Source: a virus. From it: DNA of 64,000 bases. A program made the translations under genes and the position numbers. This document shows, in pieces, positions 31,885 to 63,695 of this stretch (position 1 is its first letter; every line of letters starts with the position of its first letter). The stretch spans positions 21,106 to 85,105 of the IMG/VR virus record IMGVR_UViG_3300028197_001229, one strand, 5' to 3'. The notes beneath the pieces are model-generated. The model saw nothing but the letters and a program-made list of their open reading frames with translations. It was not told where the DNA came from and made no database searches.

Positions 31885-31898
31885 CCGTATACTACGTG

Positions 31899-50800: not shown

Positions 50801-51174
50801 AAAATACATATCCACAAGCCATACCTAACGATCCTCTACCTGACAACTTTTTACATCATATCGGGGGAGCTGTTCGTGGTAAAATGAAAACAGTTTATCA
50901 AGGCCGTGAAGCCGAGCACTATCCATACTACATTCATGATGTACGTATGCTGGTCCAGGGTACTAAGAACGTAGATAACCTTAGAAAGTTTATTGAAAAT
51001 CATAAACGTATCTATGGTTACGCTGACGGTCCGTTTCTTGGTATTTATAATTTAGAACAATACGAGATTACCGAGAACACTATTGGTATAGTTAATGACA
51101 AAGATCTGCGAAAGCATGTTAAGCAGAAAATGGCCGAAGGTGCCATGTCTGATATACCTAGAAATATTGTATAA
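50797..51174 (+). CDS. Unknown protein upstream of the RNA region
   Basis: 125 residues, basic with several His and Tyr; no motif. Last protein gene before the gene-less stretch containing the large RNA. Confidence 0.5.
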   Translation: MKNTYPQAIPNDPLPDNFLHHIGGAVRGKMKTVYQGREAEHYPYYIHDVRMLVQGTKNVDNLRKFIENHKRIYGYADGPFLGIYNLEQYEITENTIGIVNDKDLRKHVKQKMAEGAMSDIPRNIV

Positions 51175-52845: not shown

Positions 52846-53139
52846 ATGAGCAAAAAAACATACAAAGTAGCAATCTGGGAAGAAATTTCCGGATACATAA
52901 TGGTAGAGTCTGATAATGAATCAGAAGCAGAAGATAAAGCTGAAGAATTAATTAATCAATACGGAGTTGAGCAACTGTTATTTCCTAATCCTCAGTTAAA
53001 AGATGATTGGGAAGAAGACATAACTGCTTACTGCGGAGATCACACACATGGTGGTAGAGAGGTATTAAGTTGTGAGTACACCGGTGAGTCTGACTCTAAA
53101 CTAGACGAGTACAAACAAGGAGGTACAGAAGATGAGTGA
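52846..53139 (+). CDS. Small acidic protein of the common phage type
   Basis: 97 residues; TYKVAIWEEISGYIMVESDNESEAEDKAEELI follows the strand-then-DEAE-helix pattern of many short phage proteins. Overlaps the next gene by 8 bases. Confidence 0.55.
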   Translation: MSKKTYKVAIWEEISGYIMVESDNESEAEDKAEELINQYGVEQLLFPNPQLKDDWEEDITAYCGDHTHGGREVLSCEYTGESDSKLDEYKQGGTEDE

Positions 53140-53335
53140 ACTTGAATACAAATCAATAATTAAGCAAAATGCTGTTATTGTGTTGGAAACTAAACTGTCA
53201 AACATTGACATGGATATGGGAATTGTTAAAACTAGGATGGAGAAGCTATTAAAAGAGCAGACTCGTTTACGTGAAAGACGAATCCAAATACTAACAGAAT
53301 TAAAACAACATAAAGAAGTAATAGAGAATATATGA
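53132..53335 (+). CDS. Short coiled-coil protein
   Basis: 67 residues, almost entirely helical with heptads ([20 protein letters not shown]). A GGAGG lies at a suitable distance before the ATG, one of the few Shine-Dalgarno-like sites outside the 56.8-58.8 kb cassette. Overlaps the following gene by 4. Confidence 0.5.
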
Positions 53336-54297
53336 AAACTATATTGATAACAGGCGGTGCCGGCTTTCTAGGAAGTCATCTATGTGACAAGTTACTAACC
53401 TCATCCGGAGATATTCATATTATATGTATGGATAATTTATTTACGGGTTCAAAGGATAACATCAATCATTTACTTGGTCATCCTAGGTTTGAGTTCATGA
53501 GACATGACGTAATTGATCCATTTAGACTTGAAGTGGATGAAATATATAACTTGGCATGTCCAGCATCTCCTGTTCATTACCAGTACAATCCATTGAAGAC
53601 TGTACAGACTTCGGTAATGGGTATGATTAACGCTCTTGATGTTGCTAGTGAGACTGGTGCTAAGATACTTCAGGCAAGTACATCTGAGGTCTATGGTGAT
53701 CCTGATGTTCACCCACAACATGAATCATATAATGGTAACGTAAATCCTATTGGACCACGTGCATGCTATGACGAGGGCAAGAGGTGTGCTGAAACGCTTT
53801 GTTATGATTATTTTAGGGAGTATGAGGTAGATATACGTGTAATGCGTATATTCAACACGTACGGGCCTAGAATGGACCCTGATGACGGGAGAGTAGTATC
53901 AAACTTTATAGTTCAAGCTTTGAAGGGAGAAGAATTAACTATATATGGGGATGGTTCTCAAACGAGATCATTCTGCTATGTAGATGATTTACTGGAAGGT
54001 ATGGTAAGACTAATGAACTGTACCAGAGATGAACTACGTGAACATGCTAACAGTGGACCAGTTAACATTGGTAACCCTGATGAGTTTACTATAAAGCAAC
54101 TAGCTGAACTAATAACGGATAAGATCAACCCGGGTGCAATGGTAAAAGAACTACCGTTACCTGAGGATGATCCTACTCAACGACGACCAGACATCACACG
54201 TGCTAAAGACATGTTAGACTGGAAGCCAACTATCAATTTGAATGATGGCTTAGATAAAACAATAGCGTACTTTGAAAAACTATTAAGTAACGAGTGA
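53332..54297 (+). CDS. UDP-glucuronate decarboxylase (UDP-xylose synthase) family protein
   Basis: 321 residues, extended short-chain dehydrogenase. The NAD-binding GGAGFLG is at 8-14, the family-specific [11 protein letters not shown] and [11 protein letters not shown] follow, then [29 protein letters not shown], the catalytic YDEGK (Y146, K150), and [22 protein letters not shown]. These motifs are specific to UXS rather than to general epimerases. It converts UDP-glucuronate to UDP-xylose by known family activity. The gene is phage-borne and lies among small unknown genes, so it is an auxiliary metabolic gene probably linked to surface or virion sugars. Confidence 0.88.
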
Positions 54298-55844: not shown

Positions 55845-56273
55845 ATGCAAACGTTCCTACCTAAACCTACGTATACTGAATCTTTTGCTTGTCTGGACAA
55901 CAAAAGACTAGGCAACCAAGTTTACCGAGAAGGCAAAACGCTACTAGGTGGCGGTTGGCCAAACCACCCAGCCTCAAAGATGTGGCGGGGCTACGAACAT
56001 CACTTGGCGCTTTATTGTTTTAGAGGGGCTCAAGAAATGGTACGTAGACGTACATGGAAGGAAGAAGTATGCATTAGATGGTTACATTACTTCCAAGATA
56101 AGATAACAGAACATGAAGATACTGGATACCCTCCATGGGTTGGTTTTCCACCACTTCATGCTTCCCATCGTAGTAATTTACTACGCAAGGACCCGGAATA
56201 CTATGGTCAGTTCGGTTGGGAAGAACCAGATGACTGGGCATATGTATGGCCCACAAACAATAACACACTATGA
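55845..56273 (+). CDS. Possible DNA-glycosylase-like or MSMEG_6728-type protein
   Basis: 142 residues. It opens MQTFLPKPTYTESFACLDNKRLGNQVYREGKTLL, then NHPASKMWRGYEHHLALY, and ends HASHRSNLLRKDPEYYGQFGW and a WP. This set is familiar from small bacterial and phage proteins annotated either as pyrimidine-dimer glycosylase-like or as an uncharacterised MSMEG_6728-type family; I cannot separate the two by eye. A DNA repair role is plausible. Confidence 0.5.
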   Translation: MQTFLPKPTYTESFACLDNKRLGNQVYREGKTLLGGGWPNHPASKMWRGYEHHLALYCFRGAQEMVRRRTWKEEVCIRWLHYFQDKITEHEDTGYPPWVGFPPLHASHRSNLLRKDPEYYGQFGWEEPDDWAYVWPTNNNTL

Positions 56274-56470: not shown

Positions 56471-56578
56471 GTGAAAATTCGAAGTACAGTCAAAGCTAAG
56501 CCTACGTCGATACACCGGCGTCTAAATAAGACGCTTCCGCGCAAGGCAAAGCATAAAAAACCTCCTCCTAGTGAGTGA
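56471..56578 (+). CDS. Possible 35-residue basic peptide
   Basis: GTG 56471 to TGA 56576-56578, rich in Lys, Arg and Pro (MKIRSTVKAKPTSIHRRLNK and a basic end). It starts 3 bases after the previous stop and ends inside a terminator stem. Tentative. Confidence 0.35.
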   Translation: MKIRSTVKAKPTSIHRRLNKTLPRKAKHKKPPPSE

Positions 56579-56588
56579 GGTTTTTTTT
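56555..56588 (+). terminator. Intrinsic terminator
   Basis: AAAAAACCTC (56555-56564) / GAGGTTTTTT (56577-56586), 10 pairs, then further T residues. Confidence 0.85.
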
Positions 56589-56604
56589 AGCTATCTGTGT
56601 TATA

Positions 56605-56612
56605 TATATTTG
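56605..56612 (+). promoter_or_regulatory. Promoter of the NUDIX cassette
   Basis: TATATTTG (56605-56612) within GTGTTATATATATTTGG. Exact match to TAnnTTTG. The first gene starts at 56664 after an A-rich leader of the phage type. Confidence 0.7.
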
Positions 56613-56663
56613 GATAACCAAGTGTATTATTGCAATAAAACCACAAAAAACAAAAAAATAACA

Positions 56664-56834
56664 ATGAATAAAGCAATAGAATTATTAAAAGAGGCTGTTA
56701 GCCTCTTAAGGGAGATCAAACATCTCCTGGGAGCTGTACGTACAGCAACTGTACGAAAGTTACCAACTTCGTATTCTAGCCCGGGTTCCGGTTACAGAGT
56801 CATCATCGAAATGCCGGAGGTTGACAATGAGTAA
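56664..56834 (+). CDS. Small protein at the head of the NUDIX cassette
   Basis: 56 residues from ATG 56664; upstream in-frame starts lie before the promoter and are rejected. The leader is A-rich and lacks a Shine-Dalgarno, unlike the following genes. Helical N-terminus and a Ser/Gly/Pro middle. Overlaps the next gene by 8 bases. Confidence 0.5.
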   Translation: MNKAIELLKEAVSLLREIKHLLGAVRTATVRKLPTSYSSPGSGYRVIIEMPEVDNE

Positions 56835-57852
56835 GTCAGGAAGAGTTTCAGCGTTTTACGATCGTTCAGTTGTGTACGGTGAAAACTATATGAACGGAGC
56901 GATCCAATACTGTAAGTGGGGAGAAACCCTCGGTATAGGTGTAGGACACTTACCTCCTGAGGATCGTGCTGATGTTAGTCAGGACATGTTTACTCATTCC
57001 AACATTCTGGATAATCCCAATCCTGCCGTTACCATAGACAGCATTCGCCCCTCCTCGGGCTTTTTCGCAATGGCCAACTTCCATCCCATGCAAATCCTGG
57101 AGAACGATTACTCCAACCTGACAATCCTCATGATAGAACAATACAATGAGGGTCAGTGGGGATTTCCTATGGGTGGAGTGGAAGAGGAGGATGCAAATCT
57201 TCTCGACACCGCCATTAGAGAGTGGGACGAGGAAACTGGTAGACAGCTACCACTCGAATCATCCCTCTGTAGCTACTCAAGAGAGTACAGCGATACAATC
57301 CATATGGAACCATTCCGGAGATTCAAAAATCAGGTCAGTAAGCCATATCAGGCTGTGGCTTTAGGAAAGTCGCTCCTGGATAACTTGTATAGGTGGACAT
57401 ACTACAGGAATACTGTAGCTGGTCCCAAGAAAATGAAATGTGTAAATCTCATTCCACTTATTACAGATTATCCTTCGGATATGGATTGCATGGAAGCACT
57501 CAAGAATCCTTCCACTCACAGTCCGGAAATACTGCAGAGTGCCTGGGTTCCTTACTACGAAGTCTTAGAGAGAGTTTGTGATGTAGACCGAGCGGTATTA
57601 CGTCACGGCATGAATGACTTAGCGTACGGACTTAAGGTTGCTTATCATAAAAGTGCTCGTGACTATCTTAAACCATTCCGCAAACGCCCGGATCAAACCA
57701 CAACTAATGGACGTATACGAAACATGTTCGAAAAGTTTGGTATGGCTCCAGAGTCATCGAATCTGTCGGCTTTGGCTGATAAGATTTATGAGGCTGATCA
57801 GAAAAGCGAGAATGACCGGATCGAAGACTGTCTTACTGAGGAAGAGTCATGA
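56827..57852 (+). CDS. NUDIX hydrolase domain protein
   Basis: 341 residues from ATG 56827 (GGAGG 6 bases upstream). The Nudix box lies at about 116-138: WGFPMGGVEEEDANLLDTAI then REWDEETG. The REWDEETG core is intact; the usual Glu six residues after the Gly is Ala. The long N- and C-terminal extensions are unusual for NUDIX proteins of about 150-200 residues. NUDIX enzymes hydrolyse nucleoside-diphosphate-linked compounds; the substrate is not predictable here. Base composition looks richer in G and C than the neighbours. Confidence 0.7.
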   Translation: MSKSGRVSAFYDRSVVYGENYMNGAIQYCKWGETLGIGVGHLPPEDRADVSQDMFTHSNILDNPNPAVTIDSIRPSSGFFAMANFHPMQILENDYSNLTILMIEQYNEGQWGFPMGGVEEEDANLLDTAIREWDEETGRQLPLESSLCSYSREYSDTIHMEPFRRFKNQVSKPYQAVALGKSLLDNLYRWTYYRNTVAGPKKMKCVNLIPLITDYPSDMDCMEALKNPSTHSPEILQSAWVPYYEVLERVCDVDRAVLRHGMNDLAYGLKVAYHKSARDYLKPFRKRPDQTTTNGRIRNMFEKFGMAPESSNLSALADKIYEADQKSENDRIEDCLTEEES

Positions 57853-58109
57853 GAAAATCCAGAAGATATATACCTGAGGATCATGCCCGTCAGTATTGGT
57901 TGAATAATCATACCCGGGCAAAGGAGGCCAATCTATCCAGTGAATTCATTACCGCCTACAAACATAGGCGTCGTAATTATAATGACTCAATCATGGAAGC
58001 AAGCAGCCAAGCTCTGAACGATATAGGTTATTGGGATACACTTGACCCGTACAAGGCCAAGGATCCTTACACATATATTATGAGTACGTTAAAGGAGGGA
58101 TCATCATGA
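57849..58109 (+). CDS. Small unknown protein of the cassette
   Basis: 86 residues, basic N-terminus and helical, ends in KEGSS. Shine-Dalgarno GAGGA precedes the ATG by 6 bases, and the ATG overlaps the previous stop. No family. Confidence 0.5.
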   Translation: MRKSRRYIPEDHARQYWLNNHTRAKEANLSSEFITAYKHRRRNYNDSIMEASSQALNDIGYWDTLDPYKAKDPYTYIMSTLKEGSS

Positions 58110-58360
58110 GTGAGGTAACCTATCCGTTGCTCAAGACGTCTGCAGGCGAAGACTGGGAGTACTTTGTTATAATTGATGGTAAGAAAGATACTGGAATGGA
58201 GAGGAGGATTCCTATCCGTACTATCAACGATGGCAATGATACTATCTACTTATCTAAGGGTAAGCTCATAACGCTCCCCGCAGATGGCCGGTGGCAGACC
58301 TTGTCAAACGGAGAGCCACGATCAAAATGGCAACAACTACGAATGGAGGGATCATCATGA
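58106..58360 (+). CDS. Small unknown protein of the cassette
   Basis: 84 residues, strand-rich; ends in MEGSS. AAAGGAGG lies 7 bases upstream of the ATG, a full Shine-Dalgarno. ATG overlaps the previous stop. Confidence 0.5.
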   Translation: MSEVTYPLLKTSAGEDWEYFVIIDGKKDTGMERRIPIRTINDGNDTIYLSKGKLITLPADGRWQTLSNGEPRSKWQQLRMEGSS

Positions 58361-58722
58361 TTCTGTTCCACGAACATATCGAGTCGATATTCCGAGCTCA
58401 CAAGCTCAGCGTATCTGGCTTATGCGAAAAGATCGGATGCAGTCGTGCTTATATCTACAGTATCTGGAGACGGGAACATGTACCGACGATGCGTTTCTTG
58501 ATGAAGCTGTTCAAAAATCTAGAAATCTCAGAAGATTGGAAAGCTGAAATCTTCGAAGCCTTCAAAACTGCTGAAGCGGAGAAGCCCAAGAACCAAGGTC
58601 AGAGCCATTTAAAAGATCTCAAAGATATGGTGGCCCGCTTGGAGGAAAGAGTAAATATGTTGCACGACAAATTTAACATCGTTGTGCAACATATTAACAC
58701 CCAAGACAAGAAAGGAGGATAA
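58357..58722 (+). CDS. Helix-turn-helix regulator of the cassette
   Basis: 121 residues from ATG 58357, overlapping the previous stop; GGAGG lies 7 bases upstream. Residues about 5-55 fit the XRE fold (HKLSVSGLCEKIGCSRAYIYSIW), followed by a heptad-rich region at about 85-115 (LKDMVARLEERVNMLHDKF) that would dimerise it. It probably controls this cassette or competes with other phage regulators. This is inference. Confidence 0.65.
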   Translation: MILFHEHIESIFRAHKLSVSGLCEKIGCSRAYIYSIWRREHVPTMRFLMKLFKNLEISEDWKAEIFEAFKTAEAEKPKNQGQSHLKDLKDMVARLEERVNMLHDKFNIVVQHINTQDKKGG

Positions 58723-58726
58723 TAAC

Positions 58727-58837
58727 ATGCTGGATACTATATTCACTGCTGTCTTGTTACTACCAACTATGGCTATCCCGATCGTTCTCATTATTGATTT
58801 GTTTATGAGCGATCCGGACGAGTTGTTTAAAAAGTAG
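58727..58837 (+). CDS. 36-residue membrane microprotein
   Basis: From ATG 58727 to TAG 58835-58837, with AAAGGAGG 8 bases upstream. One hydrophobic helix (TAVLLLPTMAIPIVLIIDLF) and a charged end. The strong Shine-Dalgarno and tight spacing make it more credible than most frames this short. Confidence 0.5.
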   Translation: MLDTIFTAVLLLPTMAIPIVLIIDLFMSDPDELFKK

Positions 58838-58850
58838 TACCAGATAAAAT

Positions 58851-58880
58851 AAACCCCTAGTGACAGTAGGGGTTTTTTTT
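58851..58880 (+). terminator. Intrinsic terminator, usable on both strands
   Basis: AAACCCCTA (58851-58859) / TAGGGGTTT (58867-58875), 9 perfect pairs with loop GTGACAG, T-run on the forward strand and A-run on the other side. It separates the cassette from a convergent gene. Confidence 0.88.
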
Positions 58881-61338: not shown

Positions 61339-62295
61339 ATGGCACATACAAAAATTATACATAAGAGAGTAACAAGTAATGGAAATGGTACAACTCAGTA
61401 CGCTGTTAAAGAATTAACTGAAGCTCCTAACGGAGATTCTGGAAGATGGTGGAAGAACATGGGTGCTGGTGGACTTACTTGGTCTAGTAACTTTCCAGAT
61501 GCTGCTTTGGCAGAAAATTTAACTAATTACAGGTTGAAGAAACGCGTAGTTGTTAAAACAAATGTAACGGCAGGTAACTACAGAGCTACTAAAACATGTA
61601 CCTTTGGTTATACAGCCGGTGGTACTGGTACTGAAGCTAAGGCTTATAAGTCCTTAGACATGACTGCTGAAGCACCTAGACCGGACATGGGTAACGTTAC
61701 TAACGACCAAACCTGGGAAGACTATTCTGGAAACTTAGTAAATGTAAAAGAGGTATGGGAAAAGCTTTACCAAGGTGACCCACATGGTAGTGGAGCTAAG
61801 GATTTAAACGATGTTCTTAGGACAGATATGTGTTTAGATTCTGACGCAGAGTTTTATCATGGTAACGATACTGTGTTCACACCACCTGCTAATTCATCCA
61901 CTTATAATTTTGCCGAAGTGGAGGCTATGATGCTTACCGCGATGCGTCAGATCTACTCTCCAGTTCCCGGGTTCCCAGAGGATGGTGACGACAGTATTAC
62001 AGTGCAAGGTAATAATAATGGTTACATTCCTGAACAGAACGGAAACGTTACATTTACAGGGTCATCCGGAGCTAATCTAACTGAAGAGATTTACGCCTTG
62101 ATATTTAGCGATACTCCTGGTTCGTCTTCGTATACAAGTAATAGTACTTACATGCTAAAGGTTCGTGAGGAAACATTTACTCATAACGGTACAACAGAAA
62201 CGAAAAAAGGGTTGTTTGCATATGATGCCAATTCTAGTCTAAGTGGACCAATATTTATCTTTGCCGAGCCTGGTGCTGATGGTACTTATCTTTGA
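61339..62295 (+). CDS. Unknown protein related to the preceding one
   Basis: 318 residues, Thr/Gly/Asn-rich. RPDMGN...VNVKEVWEKLYQG...LNDVLRTDMCLDSDAEF aligns by eye with the preceding gene's RLDMSG...VVEIW...LSDVMCDS, indicating tandem duplication and divergence or shared fold. Its C-terminus is Ala/Gly-rich. Probably virion-associated (inference). Confidence 0.5.
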   Translation: MAHTKIIHKRVTSNGNGTTQYAVKELTEAPNGDSGRWWKNMGAGGLTWSSNFPDAALAENLTNYRLKKRVVVKTNVTAGNYRATKTCTFGYTAGGTGTEAKAYKSLDMTAEAPRPDMGNVTNDQTWEDYSGNLVNVKEVWEKLYQGDPHGSGAKDLNDVLRTDMCLDSDAEFYHGNDTVFTPPANSSTYNFAEVEAMMLTAMRQIYSPVPGFPEDGDDSITVQGNNNGYIPEQNGNVTFTGSSGANLTEEIYALIFSDTPGSSSYTSNSTYMLKVREETFTHNGTTETKKGLFAYDANSSLSGPIFIFAEPGADGTYL

Positions 62296-62300
62296 TAATA

Positions 62301-63695
62301 ATGAAAAAAGAACCAGAACTTAGTTTACCAAAATACGAGGTTAACGAAACTGTTTCTTCCCTCAGTCAGAAAATTGACTGGGGGTTGAAGCAACTTAACG
62401 TACCCGATACTTGGAAAGTAACCAGGGGTGAAGGTATAACTGTTATGGTTATAGATACTGGACACCCGAATCATCCCGATTTAAATGATAACACTAAACC
62501 CGGTAGAAACTTTATTGATGGTGAATCTATGTTCGATGATAATGGTCATCAGACTCACTGTACTGGGATAATATGTGCACAGGACAATGCACACGGTATG
62601 GTTGGTGTAGCTCCTGAGTCTAACTGTTTATCTGTTAAGGCGTTATCACGTAGTGGTAGTGGTTCTTATGCAGGTTTGGCAGCAGCATTAGACTACGCGA
62701 TTGAAGTTCAGCCTGATTTAGTATCTATGAGTTTAGGTGGTTCAATGCCTAGTACTGAAATGGAGTCTAGGATTAAAAAACTATACGCTATGAACATACC
62801 CGTCATATGTGCTGCTGGTAACACAGGAGAAGGTGGTGTTAACTGGCCTGCTGCTTATGACGAGACTATTGCTGTCGCAGCTTACGACAAGTTTGGAGAA
62901 ATTGCTTATTTTTCATCTAGAGGAGACACTGTTGAATGGGCAGCCCCGGGAGTTGATATTTACAGTACTTATCTAAATGGTACTTATGCTTCATTGAGTG
63001 GCACATCTATGGCTTGTCCGTTCATAGCTGGTGTTATAGCACTAATGTTGTCTAAACATAAGAAACAAGAAGAAGCTACTGGTATGAACGACTGTAAGAC
63101 GGTTGAAGACATACGGAATCACCTGTTAAAGTATACTAAGGATAAGGGTGAGTCGGGTAAGGATAATTCTTGGGGATATGGTACCATAGACGTTAAAGGT
63201 CTTATACTAAATGATCCTGTTGAGGAAGAAGATCCTTTTACTCCACCACAGCCTGAACCAGAGCCTGAAGAAGATCCTGAAGAAGATCCTTTTACTCCAC
63301 CACAACCTGAACCAGAGCCTGAACCAGAGCCTGAACCAGATCCCAAATGCCCCTTACCTAATCCGTGCCCTGAAGCGCCTTGTCCAGATTACCCTAATTG
63401 TAAGCCTGAACCAGAGCCTGAAAAGCCTAATGAGGATTGTCCGTTTCAGGATCCATGCCCATGGCCTAATCCGTGTCCACCATGCCCTGAATATCCAGAA
63501 AAAATTGAACCTCCTAAAAAGGATAAGAATAAACTGTATATGATCCTGGGTATAGGTTTTGTAGTCGTCTCCGCTCTTATAATCTATATGTTTACTACTG
63601 AGGATTCATTTGAGATACCAAACCCGCCATACATTGATGAGAACGGAAATGTAAATTGGGACGATAAGTACGAACATGATAGATCCGGGAAATAA
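62301..63695 (+). CDS. Subtilisin-like serine protease with Pro-rich linker and membrane anchor
   Basis: 464 residues from ATG 62301. S8-family catalytic triad: Asp in VIDTGHP (D52), His in NGHQTHCTG (H83), Ser in SGTSMACP (about S236). After the protease domain come PEPEPE and DPFTPPQ repeats and a Cys/Pro-rich spacer (PCPxxPxC type). A single hydrophobic helix near 412-430 (MILGIGFVVVSALIIYMF) and a short charged tail follow. There is no N-terminal signal peptide, so membrane insertion would be C-terminal. Possible roles are virion maturation or exposure at the host surface; neither is proven. Confidence 0.85.
   Translation: MKKEPELSLPKYEVNETVSSLSQKIDWGLKQLNVPDTWKVTRGEGITVMVIDTGHPNHPDLNDNTKPGRNFIDGESMFDDNGHQTHCTGIICAQDNAHGMVGVAPESNCLSVKALSRSGSGSYAGLAAALDYAIEVQPDLVSMSLGGSMPSTEMESRIKKLYAMNIPVICAAGNTGEGGVNWPAAYDETIAVAAYDKFGEIAYFSSRGDTVEWAAPGVDIYSTYLNGTYASLSGTSMACPFIAGVIALMLSKHKKQEEATGMNDCKTVEDIRNHLLKYTKDKGESGKDNSWGYGTIDVKGLILNDPVEEEDPFTPPQPEPEPEEDPEEDPFTPPQPEPEPEPEPEPDPKCPLPNPCPEAPCPDYPNCKPEPEPEKPNEDCPFQDPCPWPNPCPPCPEYPEKIEPPKKDKNKLYMILGIGFVVVSALIIYMFTTEDSFEIPNPPYIDENGNVNWDDKYEHDRSGK
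63226..63345 (+). repeat. In-frame Pro/Glu repeat region of the protease gene
   Basis: Imperfect repeats encode DPFTPPQPEPEPE twice, then PEPEPEP stretches. The repeats are close at DNA level, so length variation by slippage is likely. Confidence 0.8.

What the first reader, a model, noticed from the sequence alone, without database searches (positions are those of the whole stretch)
56664..58880. NUDIX cassette with Shine-Dalgarno sites and different composition
Five consecutive genes (56827, 57849, 58106, 58357, 58727) have clear GGAGG or GAGGA motifs 6-8 bases before ATG, while most other genes in the window have none. The DNA looks richer in G and C and uses more CTC/CTG/ATC. It is closed by a terminator but starts from the phage-type promoter. 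This looks like a module acquired from a Shine-Dalgarno-using organism and placed under local control.
Basis: seen in the sequence. Interest (0 to 1): 0.78.

Follow-up and report, generated by a model that had tools for sequence, protein, structure and literature searches.

The report
Foreign Shine-Dalgarno operon in SD-less phage
A large uncultured phage that almost never uses Shine-Dalgarno ribosome-binding sites carries one six-gene operon, around a NUDIX enzyme, that looks recently imported: its codon usage is foreign and five of its genes keep Shine-Dalgarno sites, while its promoter, terminator and first-gene start are the phage's own type.

Summary
Window 56664-58837 is a six-gene operon. 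Genes 2-6 carry Shine-Dalgarno (SD) sites, four strong and one weak. Only 1 of 103 other genes in the 85-kb virus contig has a strong one (Fisher p=5e-6). Codon usage is 9.7 SD away from the rest of the contig, and each of the six genes is more atypical than all 97 scored native genes.

The control elements are local. The promoter (56597-56613) matches a motif conserved across four related phage contigs. The operon is bounded by terminators. The first gene (56664) has no SD, an 80%-A leader and no start-site structure.

Best reading: a recently acquired, moron-like accessory operon from an SD-using genome, entered through one native-type SD-less start, with downstream cistrons reached by stop-start overlaps and/or their SDs. 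A related phage has a similarly built unit.

No donor was found: the NUDIX protein has no full-length relative in any collection searched. The Bacteroidota host is inferred, not shown. The three strongest SDs of the contig are in the operon (-12.9, -12.9, -16.3 kcal/mol), near or inside the range that bS21-free ribosomes favour in Flavobacterium: a testable but unproven alternative.

The parts
56559..56592 (+). Upstream terminator-like hairpin (AAAAACCTCCTCCTAGTGAGTGAGGTTTTTTTTA) ending the preceding operon and abutting the promoter
   Evidence: read directly in the sequence; not listed by the consensus scanner. The same terminator|promoter joint style is seen in relative G001 at 116079 and 113484
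56597..56613 (+). Phage-lineage promoter motif GTGTTATATATATTTGG driving the cassette; its upstream GnAAT box is replaced by the end of the terminator
   Evidence: 8 copies in window at up to 3 mismatches against 0.41 expected; conserved in intergenic DNA of G001, G002, G018
56614..56663 (+). Native-type A-rich leader (22% GC) before the SD-less first start
   Evidence: 80% A in -20..-1, folding energy 0.0 (100th percentile of native starts for both)
56664..56834 (+). Gene 1, 56 aa, SD-less entry gene, foreign codons, no known family
56827..57852 (+). Gene 2, 341-aa NUDIX-domain hydrolase with about 95 aa before and about 200 aa after the matched stretch; SD GGAGGT
   Evidence: Pfam NUDIX 1.7e-8, 35 bits against cut-off 21.1; SD
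57849..58109 (+). Gene 3, 86 aa, orphan; weak SD GAGGA; 4-nt overlap with gene 2
58106..58360 (+). Gene 4, 84 aa, orphan; SD AAAGGAGG; 4-nt overlap with gene 3
58357..58722 (+). Gene 5, 121-aa Cro/C1-type helix-turn-helix protein with a coiled-coil-like tail; SD GGAGG; 4-nt overlap with gene 4
   Evidence: Pfam HTH_3 1.5e-4 (22.2 bits, just under cut-off 23), PHROG transcription regulators 3.5e-5
58727..58837 (+). Gene 6, 36-aa hydrophobic (membrane-like) peptide; extended SD AGAAAGGAGG, strongest of the contig
58091..58109 (+). Repeated translation-start element, copy 1 (AAAGGAGGGATCATCATGA)
   Evidence: D1
58342..58360 (+). Repeated translation-start element, copy 2 (AATGGAGGGATCATCATGA, 95% identical)
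   Evidence: D1
58651..58698 (+). Inverted repeat (18-nt arms, 16 matched, 12-nt loop) inside the 3' end of gene 5, just before the SD of gene 6: operator or RNA hairpin
   Evidence: only such stem in 64 kb; 0 of 100 synonymous shuffles reach it; RNA fold -21.1, z -3.4
58851..58875 (+). Terminator closing the operon (also read from the minus strand)

Best explanation
A recently acquired, moron-like accessory operon. A six-gene block with the codon usage and SD start sites of another genome was recombined into the accessory region of a phage that initiates translation without SDs, between a native terminator|promoter|leader and a native terminator. Transcription starts at the phage's own promoter (inferred from an exact match to a lineage-conserved motif). 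Ribosomes enter at gene 1 through a native-type, A-rich, unstructured, SD-less start. Genes 2-5 overlap the previous gene by 4-8 nt and gene 6 starts four nt after the previous stop, so they can be reached by termination-reinitiation even where the host ribosome ignores SDs; the SDs are relics or add to re-initiation. Products: a NUDIX pyrophosphohydrolase of unknown substrate, a Cro/C1-type regulator (a candidate for acting at the inverted repeat 58651-58698) and four small proteins. Shown: composition, SDs, promoter match, overlaps, absence of the NUDIX gene in relatives. Inferred: direction of transfer, donor type, mode of translation, function.
For: SD enrichment against 103 native genes. 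Codon usage z = -9.7, every gene outside the native range. GC3 0.41-0.52 against a median of 0.29. Promoter exact copy of 31896 and conserved in three other contigs. Entry gene has the most A-rich and least structured start; genes 2-5 have lower A content and more structured starts. NUDIX protein has no match in G001, G002, G003 or G018 although much of the core is syntenic. A related phage (G001:115256-116079) has the same plan: terminator|promoter|A-rich SD-less entry gene, then two SD genes (-11.9, -7.1), then terminator, with codon usage in the lowest 8-10% of G001 genes. Terminator|promoter joints recur at G001:113484 with a GC3 0.61 gene.
Against: No donor or homologue found, so transfer rests on composition alone. 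Gene 1 shares the foreign codons yet has a native-type start, so the 5' junction is not a clean seam. The flanking accessory genes are not conserved in relatives, so there is no empty site to compare. Gene calls and starts come from my own simple caller. One contig only; misassembly cannot be tested without reads. Relatives G001 and G002 use SDs somewhat more often than chance (7% and 17% of genes), so the lineage is not strictly SD-free.
Confidence: 0.68

Rival explanations
1. The SDs are functional control elements in the present host: the operon is translated mainly by a subset of ribosomes with an exposed anti-SD (for example bS21-free ribosomes of Bacteroidota), so it is expressed under particular conditions such as ribosome damage or turnover in infection.
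For: In Flavobacterium johnsoniae ribosomes lacking bS21 prefer mRNAs with very strong SDs (< -13 kcal/mol, typical of rpsU) (PMC9976891). With tail UCACCUCCUUUCU the three strongest SDs of the whole contig are in the operon: 58727 at -16.3 (10 consecutive pairs), 58106 and 58357 at -12.9; 0 of 103 native genes are as strong.
Against: Host not shown to be Bacteroidota. Tail sequence taken from memory, only consistent with the numbering in the paper. Two of three lie just under the threshold and pair through a bulge. The other two SDs are weaker (-10.8, -5.6). Foreign codon usage explains the SDs without any regulation. No bS21 or S1 gene found in the available contig.
Confidence: 0.12
2. Native operon whose SDs and GC reflect selection for high or coupled expression rather than transfer.
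For: Promoter, leader and terminators are native; SD-coupled overlapping genes are common in phages generally (general knowledge).
Against: 46 native overlapping starts in the same contig lack strong SDs in all but one case; codon usage differs in all six genes including the SD-less one; NUDIX gene absent from relatives.
Confidence: 0.1
3. Assembly chimera: a piece of another phage was joined into the contig.
For: Single metagenomic contig; cassette proteins are orphans; composition steps.
Against: Both ends carry native regulatory elements: exact copy of the phage promoter plus native leader at the 5' end, and terminator at the 3' end in the style of the lineage; a similarly built unit exists in an independent contig.
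Confidence: 0.07

Closest known systems
Phage morons (accessory units; definition in PMC4378225)
   Same: Accessory DNA with its own promoter and terminator and nucleotide composition unlike its neighbours; not found in relatives
   Different: Six genes instead of usually one; promoter is the phage's own lineage motif; foreignness extends to the translation-start mode (SD in an SD-less genome)
bS21-autoregulated rpsU of Bacteroidota (SD recognised by bS21-free ribosomes; PMC9976891)
   Same: Extended SD in an SD-less background; 58727 reaches -16.3 kcal/mol with 10 consecutive pairs
   Different: Not a ribosomal protein gene, five SDs in a row, host unproven, no expression data
NUDIX hydrolases of phages (PHROG 1185, 1198)
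   Same: NUDIX domain with the REWDEETG core
   Different: 341 aa with long unmatched N- and C-terminal parts; no full-length relative found
Vibrio phages D69/D148/D181 and Salmonella phage Arash (about 180-187 kb)
   Same: Closest named phages by large terminase
   Different: Only about 24% identity in TerL; not close kin

Membership tests
Phage moron | Transcription unit flanked by promoter and terminator | tested here: met
   promoter 56597-56613, terminator 58851-58875
Phage moron | Nucleotide composition different from adjacent genes | tested here: met
   codon usage z = -9.7
Phage moron | Inserted between two genes that are adjacent in related phages | tested here: inconclusive
   synteny with relatives ends at 51174; flanking genes are themselves accessory
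Phage moron | Usually a single coding region | tested here: not met
   six genes; hence 'moron-like' only
Phage moron | Expressed independently of the lytic programme or from the prophage | not testable with these tools
   no transcriptome; promoter is the lineage-wide phage motif
NUDIX hydrolase | Pfam NUDIX domain above curated cut-off | tested here: met
   35 bits against 21.1
NUDIX hydrolase | Nudix box GX5EX7REUXEEXGU | tested here: inconclusive
   read from sequence: G-VEEED-A-NLLDTAI-REWDEETGR; the REUXEEXG core is intact, the first E is A and the last U is R
Cro/C1-type HTH regulator | HTH_3 domain above curated cut-off | tested here: inconclusive
   22.2 bits against cut-off 23; several PHROG regulators at 3.5e-5 to 1e-4
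bS21-free-ribosome target (rpsU-like) | SD-anti-SD pairing stronger than -13 kcal/mol over 9-13 consecutive pairs | tested here: inconclusive
   one of five genes meets it (58727, -16.3, 10 pairs); two at -12.9 with a bulge
bS21-free-ribosome target (rpsU-like) | Host is a Bacteroidia with sequestered anti-SD | not testable with these tools
   only indirect signs: SD-less, A-rich starts, TATATTTG-like promoter

The most novel reading that the evidence does not exclude
A phage operon whose extended SD sites make it a target of specialised, anti-SD-exposed (bS21-free) host ribosomes, so that it is switched on translationally when such ribosomes appear during infection.
Probability: 0.1. Interest if true: 0.85.

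Novelty: new variant of a known kind. Interest (0 to 1): 0.48.

Why it matters
It is a natural experiment on gene transfer between genomes with different translation-start rules. If read correctly, a phage can adopt an SD-dependent operon by supplying one native SD-less entry gene and relying on stop-start overlaps for the rest, or its SDs may be read by specialised ribosomes. Both predictions can be tested with reporters in Flavobacterium johnsoniae strains described in the literature. The same terminator|promoter|A-rich-entry-gene plan in a related phage suggests a general way in which this lineage carries exchangeable cargo.

Tried and rejected
Donor search by NUDIX protein in phages, plasmids, IMG/VR, GTDB genome contigs and ~790 sampled genomes of two phyla: nothing full-length. 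Genes 3, 4 and 5 in the phage records, and genes 3 and 5 in IMG/VR: nothing. Genes 1 and 6 were not searched at protein level beyond family libraries. DNA-level search of the operon: only a 54-bp NUDIX-box match to an Erwinia phage.

Repeated start element GGAGGGATCATCATGA as a donor signature: 9 unrelated contigs, no shared context.

Structure prediction of the NUDIX protein from a single sequence failed (pLDDT 35), so no fold search was run.

Phage-encoded bS21 in relative G001: one 26.2-bit match, under the cut-off of 27, inside a 181-aa ORF; not claimed. S1-domain proteins: none.

Host inference from the epimerase gene 53332-54297: best relatives mixed across phyla, uninformative.

Idea that accessory genes in G001 are generally SD-rich: not significant (p = 0.17).

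GC segmentation as boundary finder: puts the left edge at 55.9 kb, contradicted by codon usage, so not used.

16S 3' tail pattern in three genomes: no match, uninformative.

Full report
What the window is. The window is bases 21106-85105 of an 85,105-base IMG/VR virus record. It carries a phage core (terminase, portal, DNA polymerase, primase, helicases, RecA-like protein). Its terminase finds G001 (167 kb) and G003 (16 kb) at 79% identity. Its promoter motif, used as a search pattern, found two more relatives confirmed by portal: G002 (47 kb, 76%) and G018 (204 kb, 54%). The core, about 7.7-51 kb in G001, is syntenic; beyond 51174 almost nothing is shared with any relative.

The observation. 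Genes were called on the whole contig with a codon-based caller that ignores SDs. Four of the five named starts have duplex energies of -9.8 to -12.1 kcal/mol with the anti-SD and one (57849) has -6.1. Of 103 native genes one reaches -8 (53132). Fisher p is 5e-6 at -8 and 7e-6 at -6; neither native overlapping starts (1 of 46) nor internal ATGs of the cassette (1 of 43) show it. The native level of SDs is close to that of random ATGs in G0 and G018; G001 (7%) and especially G002 (17%) are above random, but no run of five exists in any of them.

Composition. The six genes differ from 99 native segments of similar size by 9.7 SD in synonymous codon choice, and each gene alone is below the lowest of 97 native genes. 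Codon usage fits G001, G002 and G018 better than G0 but none well. This is what an unameliorated import looks like.

Local control. The promoter GTGTTATATATATTTGG at 56597 is an exact copy of the one at 31896. The motif occurs 8 times in the window at up to 3 mismatches (0.41 expected) and in intergenic DNA of the relatives, with an upstream GnAAT box (31 sites). At 56597, and at G001:116079 and 113484, the upstream box is replaced by the T-run of a terminator that directly abuts the promoter. The leader is 22% GC; gene 1 has the most A-rich (80%) and least structured start region of the contig and no SD, whereas genes 2-5 have lower A content and more structured starts. Genes 2-5 overlap their upstream gene by 4-8 nt. 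The likely mode of expression is therefore native entry at gene 1 followed by coupling. This is inference; no expression data exist.

A second case. In G001 the unit 116079-115256 has the same plan: terminator, promoter, A-rich SD-less entry gene (115618-116034), two SD genes (-11.9 and -7.1), terminator; codon usage is in the lowest 8-10% of G001 genes. The next units (113560-114498, 112264-113442) have GC3 of about 0.6 behind AT-rich leaders and first codons. So promoter-terminator cargo units of atypical composition seem to be a habit of this lineage.

Could the SDs be used? In Flavobacterium the anti-SD is sequestered by bS21, bS18 and bS6, and bS21-free ribosomes favour very strong SDs, < -13 kcal/mol, typical of rpsU (PMC9976891). 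With a 13-nt tail UCACCUCCUUUCU (sequence from memory, consistent with nt 1532-1544 in that paper) the three strongest SDs of the contig are in the cassette: 58727 -16.3 (ten consecutive pairs), 58106 and 58357 -12.9. This does not show use, but it keeps the reading open. Host identity rests on indirect signs: SD-less starts with A at -3 and a TATATTTG-like promoter, which resembles the Bacteroidetes consensus TAnnTTTG (own knowledge; papers holding that string are listed but were not read).

Hidden inverted repeat. Inside the end of the HTH gene, 58651-58698 has 18-nt arms with 16 matches. It is the only such stem in 64 kb, not reached in 100 synonymous shuffles, and folds at -21.1 kcal/mol (z -3.4). 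It lies about 14 nt before the SD of gene 6, and may be an operator for the HTH protein or an RNA element for gene 6; untested.

Proteins. NUDIX domain 35 bits; NCBIfam and PDB matches are essentially to the NUDIX box only. The HTH protein is a weak Cro/C1 type. The others have no family. No full-length relative of the NUDIX protein was found in any collection available; the IMG/VR and genome-contig scans find close relatives only. A single-sequence AlphaFold model failed.

Verdict. Real, clearly non-random, best read as a moron-like accessory operon recently imported from an SD-using genome and run from native signals. Donor, host, translation mode and function remain open.

Noticed in passing
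window 58651-58698: Unique long inverted repeat (18-nt arms, 12-nt loop) hidden in the 3' end of the HTH gene, just upstream of the strongest SD of the contig.
   Followed up: partly
window 8322, 25107, 31896, 43047, 51179, 56597, 59189; G001 14 sites; G002 5; G018 4: Lineage-wide bipartite promoter GnAAT-n13-TGTGTTATATATANTTGR in intergenic DNA; used as a search pattern it retrieved related phages that protein patterns had missed.
   Followed up: yes
G001 (IMGVR_UViG_3300009103_000004) 112264-116079, as L012:12264-16079: Series of short cargo units, each terminator|promoter|A-rich leader|AT-rich first codons|GC-rich body, with codon usage among the most atypical of that genome.
   Followed up: partly
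window 53132-53335: The only native-composition gene with a strong SD (AAGGAGGT, -12.7), directly before a UDP-sugar decarboxylase/epimerase-like gene (53332-54297).
   Followed up: no
window 55845-56273: Pyrimidine dimer DNA glycosylase family protein (Pfam Pyr_excise, 3.6e-11), two genes upstream of the cassette promoter.
   Followed up: no
G001:107341-107484: Ribosomal protein S21-like stretch (26.2 bits, cut-off 27) in the C-terminal part of a 181-aa ORF; probably chance.
   Followed up: partly
window 62292-63695: ORF resembling a subtilisin-like serine protease, followed by a proline/glutamate-rich tail and a hydrophobic segment (read from sequence).
   Followed up: no
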